Shown one piece after another: positions 32,521 through 35,325 of a stretch of DNA of 64,000 bases. The stretch spans positions 1-64,000 of the forward strand of contig CAMDCV010000008.1 in NCBI GenBank assembly GCA_945890645.1. The letters run 5' to 3'. The notes beneath the pieces were generated by a model. It did no database searches, had not been told where the DNA came from, and saw only the letters and a list, made by a program, of their open reading frames with translations. This DNA comes from Akkermansia muciniphila (lineage in GTDB: Bacteria; Verrucomicrobiota; Verrucomicrobiia; Verrucomicrobiales; Akkermansiaceae). Positions within the stretch are counted from its first letter, which is position 1. Each line of letters starts with the position of its first letter. Both the position numbers and the translations under genes were made by a program.

Positions 32521-35325
32521 TCAGGGTTGGGGTTTCTCGCCGCGGACGCGCATGAAGGCTTTATCGCCCTCTGCCGGAACTGTCCATTCAATGGGGTCAC
32601 CGGCATCCTCGAACGGCACTATTCCCAGCTCTGGGGTCATTTCTAGCTGGAGGCTCAGTTTGAACTGGCCTGCCTCTGGCTCGATGAGGAACTGGCCGAG
32701 ACTCACATCGATGAGTTGTTCTTGGGTGAACAAGTCGAACTCGCTGGCGTTATCGAGTATGGCATCGGATACGTTGCGGTCGCTGACGGCGGGACGGGTG
32801 CCGATGAGGGCCTCGATCTTGTCTGAAATACCATCGCCGTCGCTGTCGAGGGAGTAGGGATTGGAGCGGAGGTTGACGAATTCCTCGCGGTTGTCGATGC
32901 CGTCGCCGTCGGTGTCGAGGGCGGCATCGAAGTAATCGGGTATGCCGTTGGTGTTGGCATCGGTGGGTTGGTACCACTCGAAGTCGAACTCGAAGGCCTG
33001 GTCGGTTTCGGCGCGGAACTGGTTGTAAATGGGCGAGTAGCTTTTCACCTCCACGGTGCCATCGGGATTGACGACGAGCAGGCGCAGGAAGCCGTTGCCG
33101 CCGAAGGGTGAGAGGAACTGGTAGTTCGCGAGCATTTGGTGGACATTCTGGCCAGCGTTGTTGGCATCGGTGCGAAAGCCGGTGCCGTCACCGAGGACGT
33201 GGCCATTTACGGTGAGGACGAAGTTGTGTTTTTTGACGAGTTTTTGCCACAGTTCCTCGCCATCATTGACGCCGCCGGGGGTGCTGTAGGCGTGGGGATT
33301 GTAGGCCTGGGGATTGACGGCATCGAGGTGGTCGTAGCGCAGGTCGTTATTGTTCATGAAGGCGTGGGTGACAAGGATCGCTTTCTTGCCGGGGTGCTGA
33401 GCAAGGATGGAATCGGCCCAGGCGATGGTGCTATCGCGCGGGCCCCACTCGAGGCACATGACGATGAAGTCGTAGCCGCCGGCTTGGAAGAAGTGGTAGG
33501 TGTTGTCCATTTCGCCAGTGACCATCGCGCCGCCGAAGTTCGGGCGGGCGGAATAGTCGTTGAAGAGGAAATAGTCGTTCATGAAAGTCTGGCGGGTGGA
33601 GGCATTGCCGCTGGGGCCGTAATCGTGGTTGCCGGGGACGAAGGCGTAGGGGATGTGACCATCGAGCAGGGCCATGGATTCGCGGGCGGCTTTCCACTCG
33701 GGGATGGAGTTGACGTTGACGATGTCGCCGAGGTGGAGGGCCATGCGGATGTTGTAGCGGTCTGCATTGTCGCGCAGCCATGCGGTCTGTGCGGAGAAGA
33801 CGCCGGGGCGGTTCTGCGAGTAAATCTGGGTATCGGGGAGGAGGGCGATGGTCCATGCGCCGGGGACGATCTCGGAGTCCCCGGGCTGCGGTGTGATGTT
33901 GATGGGCTGCGCCTCGCGGTCGCGCACTTTTTTCGTCTGAGTGTAGAGATTATCGAAGAATGCCTCGTTGAACTGCCCGTAAACGGCGTTGCTTTGCTCG
34001 GTGCCGGTGGAGGCGTTTATGATTTTGTCTGGAGCCATGGCGGCGAGGAGGAGCTGACCTTGACCGTAGGCACCTTCCATCAGTGCGGGGAAGCGGGCGC
34101 GCTCGTCGCCAGAGAGGATGACCTCGAAGCCGGCGAAGGACGAGAATGCTTCCCAAACGACATCATCGAGATGCGGCGCGATATGCGGCTGGGTGTAGAA
34201 GACCTTGCCGCCTGCATTGGTCGGAAAGCCCTGGATCATTGGGTGGGTGGGCGAGAGGATGAAGGCATCCGCATAATCGGTGTCCACGCGGGTGGCGTTC
34301 TGGGTGTCCGGCAGGAAGACGGGCTCGGCCTCGGTCTGATCGGCCTGGGCGAGCTGGACTAGGTAACCGGCGCGGTCGATGTAGTCATCGAGCATTTCCC
34401 CGTAGGCGGCCATGTAGGCTGCGTAGCGCGGATCCTGGCTGACGAAGGAGCCGAAAAGGATGAGGTCCACGTCGGTTTCAGGGTCATTGGCGGCGATGAA
34501 AGGAGGCTGATCGAGCGGCAGCGGAATGACGTGGAAACCGGCTCGGCGGAGGGATTCGCCGGCACCGACATGGCCGCTGAAGCCATCGGCGGTTTCCCAG
34601 ACGTAGGCGGTGAGGCCTTCGGGGTTGGCGGCATTGGGGGTGGCAGGCGGGTTCGGCGTTTGGCCGGCATCCGACCACAGGAACTGCTGGGGGTCCGGAG
34701 TGACGGGATCCGCTGCATTGCGGCTGACGATTTCGAGCACGCCGATGGCGCCGAACTCGGTGGAGGTGGGGTGGGCGGCGATGGTGATTTCGATTTGCCC
34801 GGAGGCGTTCGGCACCATGCCGGAAACGGAGGCGACCTTATCGCGGTTGGCGACGGCCTCCAGCGAAGTGGTCTGGCTGCTTGCGCCGACGACGGTGTAG
34901 TTCGTGAGGAAAATCTGGGGCGCTACGCGGTTACTGGAGACGAAGAACTTGAAGTCATAAACCAGCGCGGTGTCCAGGCCGGTGATGAGAACCTTGGCGG
35001 TGGTGTTGGTCGTCTTGTTGACGTAGGAGAAGTCGCCGGTGGCATTCGGGACATAGATGGTTTCGCCGCCCAGCGAATTGGTGGAGACGGCGACGAAGGT
35101 GTCCGGCACGGAAATGCTGACTCCGGGGACGGTCGCGCCGCTGGTGTTGACGATGGTGTTGTCCGCCGCGGGCGCTATCTCTGCCATATTGTTCCAATGG
35201 CGGGCGAAGATGTCCGGGCTAGCGGTGGTTTCGACGCCGCGGCCAAAATCCACGAGGATCCGCTCTGCGGCGGAAAGCGTCGCCGTCTGTAGCGCGGCGA
35301 TAAGTAGAATGGGAAGTGTTTTCAT
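32521..35325 (-). CDS. Large secreted calcineurin-like phosphoesterase with Ca-binding repeats
   Basis: From ATG 35325 the 934-residue protein has a signal peptide ([19 protein letters not shown]), an N-terminal beta-rich region, and a metallophosphoesterase domain (about 520-770) with [44 protein letters not shown] and VNGHVLG, the metal-binding D-x-Q, GD, GNH(D) and H motifs. Near residues 820-875 are thrombospondin type 3/dockerin-like Asp repeats ([37 protein letters not shown]), likely calcium sites. It is GC-richer than its surroundings and sits between two copies of the rpoC tail. Substrate is unknown. Confidence 0.85.

What the first reader, a model, noticed from the sequence alone, without database searches (positions are those of the whole stretch)
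32521..35325. Secreted metallophosphoesterase with calcium-repeat tail as the cargo of the insertion
A single 934-residue gene fills the space between the two rpoC tails. It combines a signal peptide, a large N-terminal beta-rich region of unknown fold, a calcineurin-like phosphoesterase with all metal motifs, and dockerin/thrombospondin-3-like Asp repeats. Its lone presence suggests it is the reason the segment was kept.
Basis: partly seen in the sequence, partly recalled or inferred. Interest (0 to 1): 0.5.

Follow-up and report, generated by a model that had tools for sequence, protein, structure and literature searches.

The report
Foreign secreted phosphatase beside duplicated rpoC end
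A gene for a secreted, multi-domain phosphatase-like enzyme, probably acquired from another bacterial lineage, sits between the real end of an RNA polymerase gene and a stray second copy of that end, which may be a trace of how the DNA was stitched in.

Summary
The gene is real: window 32521-35325, minus strand, 934 aa, between rpoC (35752-39912) and a second copy of the rpoC 3' end plus terminator (300 nt, 96%). It looks foreign. GC3 is 0.79 against 0.586 +/- 0.045 for 40 mechanical window ORFs. No full-length copy was found in 9 congeners. The nearest homologues found are in another, GC-richer genus (81 and 79% aa). Of 386 order genomes, 11, this one included, carry its middle domain.

The "unknown N-terminal region" is two parts: a beta-sandwich weakly resembling carbohydrate-binding modules, and a ThuA/class-I-amidotransferase-like domain without cysteine. 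A calcineurin-like phosphoesterase follows, with motif variants DxQ and GHVL, then three TSP3-type motifs.

Best mechanism (inferred): a fragment carrying an rpoC 3' end and this gene circularised and integrated by one crossover in rpoC, leaving a duplicated tail (laboratory precedent: PMC3240628). Tail differences are mostly synonymous (8 of 10), so tail 2 probably came from a functional rpoC of a sister lineage. "The reason the segment was kept" is untestable here. A distant ThuA-phosphatase gene in another genome also lies between gene-edge repeats; only a lead.

The parts
32521..35325 (-). Gene X: secreted multi-domain phosphoesterase, 934 aa, ATG at 35325, stop at 32521
   Evidence: homologues 81/79/69/67%
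35263..35325 (-). Signal-peptide-like N-terminus, about residues 1-21
   Evidence: sequence; judged by eye
34711..35265 (-). Beta-sandwich, about residues 21-205; weak resemblance to carbohydrate-binding modules such as CBM61; absent from the ORFs of G015 and G027
   Evidence: (2xom E 1e-4)
33910..34620 (-). ThuA/class-I glutamine-amidotransferase-like domain, residues 236-472, no cysteine in it
   Evidence: 1t0b Z 13.1, 190 aligned, rmsd 3.3; weaker in the domain-alone model (Z 7.5)
32977..33864 (-). Calcineurin-like phosphoesterase, residues 488-783; D498, Q500, D534, N537, N566, H567, H654, H709 invariant in the 6 aligned sequences
32797..32961 (-). Three TSP3-like Asp-rich (calcium-binding type) motifs, residues 789-843
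32524..32763 (-). C-terminal module, residues 855-934, no Pfam match
35668..35967 (-). Repeat copy 1: genuine 3' end of rpoC plus terminator
   Evidence: terminator-like hairpin 35679-35708
32124..32423 (-). Repeat copy 2: displaced rpoC 3' end (homology can be followed to 32433) plus terminator; 13 mismatches to copy 1 in 300 nt
35326..35667 (-). Leader between rpoC terminator and X; rpoC-proximal 258 nt at GC 0.37, with a 73-aa ORF of unknown origin; no match in the other 56 genomes searched
32434..32520 (-). Spacer between the X stop and the junction into mid-rpoC
35752..39912 (-). Intact rpoC
31654..32094 (-). AT-rich orphan ORF just after the second terminator (146 aa); a 26% homologue in 1 of the other 56 genomes searched

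Best explanation
X is a horizontally acquired gene for a secreted enzyme: signal peptide, carbohydrate-binding-like beta-sandwich, non-catalytic ThuA-like domain, di-metal phosphoesterase, calcium-type TSP3 motifs. It most likely came from a GC-richer lineage related to the genus labelled g7. Inferred route: a DNA fragment holding an rpoC 3' end, its terminator, the leader and X, from a sister lineage that already had X behind rpoC, was circularised by end joining (this made the X-to-mid-rpoC junction). It then integrated by a single homologous crossover in the rpoC tail. The crossover left intact rpoC, then X, then a truncated second rpoC tail. Inferred function: the exported protein binds a carbohydrate or particle and removes phosphate from extracellular phosphoesters. 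Shown: the gene, its compositional oddness, its patchy distribution, the phosphoesterase domain, the repeat. Moderately supported: the ThuA-like domain. Inferred: the circle, the single crossover, the donor's identity, the substrate.
For: Composition: GC3 0.79 against 0.586 +/- 0.045 (40 mechanical ORFs of at least 200 aa); most divergent codon usage of 14 ORFs of at least 400 aa. GC3 of the nearest homologues is 0.82-0.83. Distribution: no full-length X in the 9 congeners; 11 of 386 order genomes, this one included, have its ThuA-like domain at E <= 1e-30. Identity to G132/G133 is 81/79%, close to that of slow-evolving RpoC (83%). DNA similarity to G132 begins 40 nt inside X and ends 10 nt before its end; to G133 it begins 11 nt before the ATG. 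Duplication: 300 nt, 96%, both terminators. Origin of tail 2: 10 coding differences, 8 synonymous; P of at least 8 of 10 is 0.0003-0.002 under neutral mutation of the pair. Precedent: in E. coli, 56 of 60 Lac- clones gave the duplication PCR product and 14 sequenced ones had 109-950-bp duplications of the homologous locus (PMC3240628, passages read). Rarity: of 260 family genomes, 4 had two tail hits, ours included; G237 reads as a strain mixture, G269 and G278 were not opened.
Against: No donor with rpoC-leader-X was found, so the circle step is inferred, and no empty site was seen. The 76 nt after the stop are identical in both copies while the coding part differs by 4.6%: conservation, gene conversion or a crossover there could explain it. 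Tail 1 is itself under constraint, which inflates the synonymous count; for the about 7 changes assigned to tail 2 (5 synonymous) the excess is weaker (P 0.01-0.03). X-to-RpoC divergence for G132 is only mildly out of line with vertical descent plus loss. In four other loci (G015, G027, G037, G132) X lies within about 7 kb of genes of one shared family, so elsewhere X may be an old chromosomal resident. Function rests on folds; the full-length model is poor (mean pLDDT 52), and two metal motifs deviate.
Confidence: 0.55

Rival explanations
1. Local tandem duplication: X was first inserted behind rpoC by any route, then the stretch rpoC tail-terminator-leader-X was duplicated in tandem, and the second leader-X was deleted, leaving a decaying tail 2.
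For: Also gives the X-to-mid-rpoC junction without homology; by distances tail 2 carries about 7 and tail 1 about 3 changes (worked out), as for a relaxed copy.
Against: Needs two extra events; 8 of 10 differences are synonymous, unlike a free copy; 7 versus 3 is too few to separate from equal rates.
Confidence: 0.2
2. Assembly artefact or strain mixture: the 82-nt exact match between the copies let the assembler choose the wrong exits, and tail 2 belongs to a second strain.
For: Draft genome in 66 contigs; longest exact run 82 nt; two versions of one rpoC end on separate contigs are seen in a relative with 6% contamination, G237.
Against: The X-to-mid-rpoC junction shares no sequence with rpoC's own upstream, so repeat confusion should not make it; contamination is given as 0.49%.
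Confidence: 0.12
3. Site-specific element: an integrase used the rpoC 3' end as attachment site and restored the gene; only the cargo is left.
For: Restored gene end plus second copy is the classic outline of such islands (recalled); a displaced 108-nt rpoC piece also exists in G049.
Against: No integrase match for X, the 73-aa ORF or seven further ORFs of about 100 aa or more that overlap X or tail 2; a 300-nt repeat with 13 mismatches is unlike a short identical att core (recalled); no full-length X in plasmid or phage records, none found in viral contigs (two peptide patterns only).
Confidence: 0.06
4. X is resident: old in the family, lost by the other congeners, with high GC3 for reasons of expression.
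For: Family members occur in several genera of the same taxonomic family; in four other loci X lies near a shared gene family.
Against: GC3 4.5 standard deviations above window ORFs and higher than rpoB and rpoC (0.67, 0.68); not found full length in 9 of 9 congeners; the duplicated rpoC tail is left unexplained.
Confidence: 0.07

Closest known systems
Single-crossover integration of circularised incoming DNA (lacZ-end duplications of Amarir-Bouhram et al. 2011, PMC3240628)
   Same: Foreign DNA bounded by a genuine gene end and a second partial copy of it, duplication of 109-950 bp; here 300 nt
   Different: There a laboratory plasmid in E. coli; here a natural locus, donor unseen, copies 4% apart
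Calcineurin-like phosphoesterases: purple acid phosphatases (1ute), GpdQ-like 2dxl, dimetal phosphatase 2nxf, Lmo2642 (2xmo)
   Same: Fold over residues 488-783 (Z 13.5-14.8) and core Asp/Asn/His motifs
   Different: DxQ and GHxL instead of DxH and GHxH; fused to ThuA-like, beta-sandwich and TSP3 parts
ThuA-like proteins (1t0b) and class-I glutamine amidotransferases
   Same: Fold over residues 236-472 (Z 13.1 with 1t0b)
   Different: No cysteine, so no glutaminase chemistry; part of a secreted phosphoesterase
Bacterial TSP3 repeat proteins (PF18884)
   Same: Asp-rich D-x-D-G-D-G motifs
   Different: Only three motifs, score just under the family cut-off

Membership tests
Calcineurin-like phosphoesterase (PF00149) | Profile score above the curated cut-off | tested here: met
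   40.1 against 21.5 bits; all 6 members of A1 match at E <= 1
Calcineurin-like phosphoesterase (PF00149) | Canonical metal motifs DxH, GDxxD/N, GNHD, H, GHxH (recalled) | tested here: inconclusive
   GDIVN, GNHD, H654 present; DTQ and GHVL deviate but are invariant in the 6 aligned sequences
Calcineurin-like phosphoesterase (PF00149) | Metal-dependent phosphoester hydrolysis | not testable with these tools
   needs purified protein
ThuA-like domain | ThuA-like fold | tested here: inconclusive
   Z 13.1 to 1t0b in the full model but 7.5, tied with other folds, in the domain-alone model; Foldseek best E 0.037 for that model
ThuA-like domain | Sequence profile match in Pfam | tested here: not met
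   no match over residues 236-472 with the limit at E 1
Class-I glutamine amidotransferase (active) | Catalytic cysteine | tested here: not met
   the only cysteine of the protein is residue 624, in the phosphoesterase
TSP3_bac repeat (PF18884) | Score above cut-off | tested here: inconclusive
   24 against 25 bits
Dockerin | Pfam/NCBIfam dockerin match | tested here: not met
   no match with the limit at E 1
Insertion by single crossover (insertion-duplication) | Direct repeat of the recipient locus on both sides of foreign DNA | tested here: met
Insertion by single crossover (insertion-duplication) | Empty site: relative with rpoC-terminator-146-aa ORF and no X | tested here: inconclusive
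   none of the congener rpoC ends read has this arrangement; the 146-aa ORF has no match in the 9 congeners
Integrase-borne genomic island | Integrase gene inside | tested here: not met
   no integrase match for X, the 73-aa ORF or seven overlapping ORFs between the repeats or including tail 2

The most novel reading that the evidence does not exclude
Genes that fuse a ThuA-like domain to a phosphatase spread among these bacteria by a recurrent process that duplicates the edge of a neighbouring resident gene around them: the rpoC tail here, and in G375 the promoter region and first codons of the next gene (131 nt, 95%, the only two copies found in that draft genome) around a distant ThuA-phosphatase gene. 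That would be an integrase-free route with its own signature.
Probability: 0.06. Interest if true: 0.65.

Novelty: new variant of a known kind. Interest (0 to 1): 0.35.

Why it matters
If right, this is a readable natural trace of gene gain by single-crossover integration at an essential gene, a route I know mainly from laboratory work (recalled), and the stray tail even records the lineage of the incoming DNA. It also points to a patchily distributed secreted protein family (beta-sandwich, ThuA-like, phosphoesterase, TSP3) that can be assayed. If the G375 case proves to be the same, the route becomes testable by a genome-wide screen for gene-edge repeats around single foreign genes.

Tried and rejected
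Core-gene tails around homologues elsewhere: direct-repeat searches on 12 other family loci (six each) gave a flanking pair only in the distant G375 locus; in L054 the repeat lies in or beside its own gene; L053, L056 and L097 have only short, low-identity or non-flanking repeats. Control: 27 non-redundant loci of at least 10 kb, 520,657 nt. Pairs of at least 100 nt, at least 90% and 1-6 kb apart occur only in the window and L098. These limits were set after seeing the list: L054 (620 nt, 93%) misses by its spacing of 971, and a pair in L060 (108 nt) by its identity of 88.9%. I left out L071, L073 and L074 as duplicates of other loci. Without the window, 1 of 12 family loci against 0 of 14 others gives Fisher p 0.46: no evidence of enrichment. 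L075, a partial relative, and L057, phosphoesterase only, were counted with the others.

Second rpoC tails elsewhere: 260 family genomes, 26 of them without any match, which say nothing. Two hits each in our genome, G237, G269 and G278. G237's are two versions of one rpoC end at contig starts, read as strain mixture. G269's listed hits both lie in long rpoC frames; G269 and G278 were not opened. G049 has a displaced 108-nt piece, 98%.

Context: I first took the X loci as wholly unrelated in context; one search shows one gene family near X in G015, G027, G037 and G132, and shared neighbours in the pair G015/G027. The ORF listing was cut; its list of similar pairs was not.

RpoC comparison: the G019 row failed (another gene was picked), so it is missing.

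Mobile carriers: no relative confirmed in viral contigs (two peptide patterns). Plasmids: 43 records match, none over 80% of the query; the 5 rows shown cover 29-39%, in and just after the phosphoesterase part. Phages: 3 records, 30-33%, the same part. First genome-contig scan found nothing, the second 5 loci. PDB by sequence: none for the whole profile; for the phosphoesterase part weak hits only (best E 0.0066), mostly to designed repeat proteins. Promoter scan near X: two sites, as many as in shuffles, none on X's strand. Literature: searches listed nothing that looked relevant to this family or to rpoC-tail duplication, but only the first rows were seen (10 of 33, 3 of 3, 8 of 49, 0); search 74 (10 of 555 listed) led to PMC3240628, the one paper read, in passages.

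The two structure models are poor (mean pLDDT 52 and 56); fold statements rest on their better parts. No tree was built.

Full report
WHAT IS THERE. Gene X occupies 32521-35325 on the minus strand (934 aa from the ATG). Upstream in its direction lies intact rpoC (35752-39912) with a terminator-like hairpin at 35679-35708, then a 342-nt leader. The leader's rpoC-proximal 258 nt are AT-rich (GC 0.37) and overlap most of a 73-aa ORF without a Pfam match. Downstream, after about 90 nt, begins a second copy of the rpoC 3' end: 32124-32423 against 35668-35967, 300 nt, 96%, 13 mismatches. Homology can be followed to 32433. The copy carries the terminator too. After it comes an AT-rich 146-aa ORF with one weak relative among the other 56 genomes searched.

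X LOOKS FOREIGN. GC at third positions is 0.79; 40 other mechanical window ORFs of 200 aa or more average 0.586, sd 0.045, and X ranks first of 14 long ORFs in codon divergence. In the own genome and 56 relatives, near full-length homologues were found in G019 and G031 (67 and 69%, another genus) and G037 (56%), and shorter ones without the first ~200 residues in G015 and G027. The 9 other congeners only matched parts of X; two of these genomes are under 90% complete. A search of 386 genomes of the order, drawn evenly from a larger group, with the ThuA-like domain found 11 carriers at E <= 1e-30, this genome included, among them G132 and G133. X is 81% and 79% identical to these, while RpoC is 83%; for G031 the figures are 69 and 77, for G037 55 and 70. 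The X genes of G132 and G133 have GC3 0.82-0.83 and lie in stretches of 61-63% GC. X is constrained: against G132, 373 of 583 nucleotide differences are at third positions.

CONTEXTS. The immediate neighbours of X differ between most loci read, but not all is different. G015 and G027 share their neighbours, and genes of one family lie within about 7 kb of X in G015, G027, G037 (directly next to X) and G132. A gene upstream of X in G019 is weakly similar (24%) to the DUF6797-cytochrome gene at 28296-30932. In the window none of the shared family was seen near X. Behind rpoC, seven congener loci were read (one contig ends about 1 kb on): G004 and G009 share genes there, as do G002 and G006; the others differ, and X and the 146-aa ORF were not found in these genomes.

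THE PROTEIN. A hydrophobic leader is followed by a beta-sandwich to about residue 205 (pLDDT 58-87 in blocks over 101-200), with weak resemblance to CBM61 and similar jelly rolls (E about 1e-4). Residues 236-472 align to a ThuA-like protein (1t0b, Z 13.1, 190 residues, rmsd 3.3) and to gamma-glutamyl hydrolase and Pdx2 (Z 11.8 and 11.5). The domain modelled alone gave a poor model and Z 7.5 to 1t0b, tied with other folds, so the assignment is moderate. X has one cysteine, residue 624, outside that domain, so glutaminase chemistry is not expected. Residues 488-783 are a calcineurin-like phosphoesterase (PF00149 40.1 bits; Z up to 14.8). The motifs DTQ (498-500), GDIVN (533-537), GNHD (565-568), H654 and GHVL (708-711) are invariant in the six aligned sequences, with two departures from the textbook pattern (recalled). 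Three D-rich TSP3-like motifs follow at 789, 804 and 827. The likely job, by inference, is extracellular release of phosphate from a carbohydrate-associated or diester substrate.

HOW IT GOT THERE. The two rpoC tails differ at 10 of 216 coding positions, 8 synonymous, and not at all in the 76 nt after the stop. Neutral mutation of such a sequence would make 24-31% of changes synonymous, so 8 of 10 is unlikely (0.0003-0.002). Constraint on tail 1 explains part of that; from the pairwise distances about 7 changes fall on tail 2 and 3 on tail 1, and about 5 of the 7 are synonymous (0.01-0.03). At two differing sites tail 2 has the base of both near congeners and tail 1 does not. The simplest reading is that tail 2 spent most of its separate history as the end of a working rpoC in a sister lineage. 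A fragment tail-terminator-leader-X from such a lineage, closed into a circle by end joining and recombined once with the resident rpoC, yields what is seen. Laboratory work documents the outcome: in E. coli conjugation experiments 56 of 60 Lac- clones gave the PCR product for a duplication of the homologous locus, 109-950 bp in the 14 sequenced, explained by single crossover of a shortened circle (PMC3240628, passages read). The same paper describes classical homology-facilitated illegitimate recombination, which instead generally deletes resident DNA.

LIMITS. The donor and the empty site are unseen, and this is a 66-contig draft in which the copies share an 82-nt exact run. Repeat confusion could reshuffle exits at the terminator, even to a separate 3.5-kb circle, but should not create the X-to-mid-rpoC junction. 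Of 260 family genomes, three others gave two tail hits; one was read as a strain mixture and two were not opened.

A LEAD. In G375 a distant ThuA-like gene, fused to a different (PhoD-like, by eye) phosphatase, lies between two 131-nt repeats, 95% identical and the only copies found in that draft genome at E <= 1e-5. One copy is the promoter region and first codons of the next gene, the other a truncated duplicate. In 27 loci (520,657 nt) no other pair met the same limits, which were set afterwards. Leaving out the window, 1 of 12 against 0 of 14 loci is no enrichment (p 0.46).

VERDICT.

Noticed in passing
L098:2987-5400 (G375): Distant ThuA-phosphatase gene between two 131-nt direct repeats (95%) made of the next gene's promoter region and first codons; only two copies found in that genome.
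   Followed up: partly
L080:7415-7522 (G049): Displaced 108-nt piece of the genome's own rpoC tail, 98%, on another contig than rpoC, beside an array of short units containing AAAGGGACAG.
   Followed up: partly
L054:9788-11378 (G042): 620-nt direct repeat, 93%, spacing 971, in the N-terminal part of the X homologue and an ORF next to it.
   Followed up: no
31654-32094 and 35453-35674: Two AT-rich orphan ORFs, one directly after each rpoC terminator copy; neither has a Pfam match.
   Followed up: partly
12626-17829: AT-rich stretch beside tRNA-Leu with PLD-like, YdjM-like and small orphan genes; could be another acquired segment.
   Followed up: no
28296-30932: DUF6797 plus cytochrome c gene downstream; a related gene (24%) lies just upstream of X in G019.
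   Followed up: no
L053, L055, L056, L094 (G037, G015, G027, G132): Genes of one shared family lie within about 7 kb of X in these four loci, directly next to X in G037; not seen near X in the window.
   Followed up: no
rpoC 3' flank in congeners (L044-L050): What follows rpoC is not conserved across the genus: G004/G009 and G002/G006 share genes pairwise, the others differ.
   Followed up: partly
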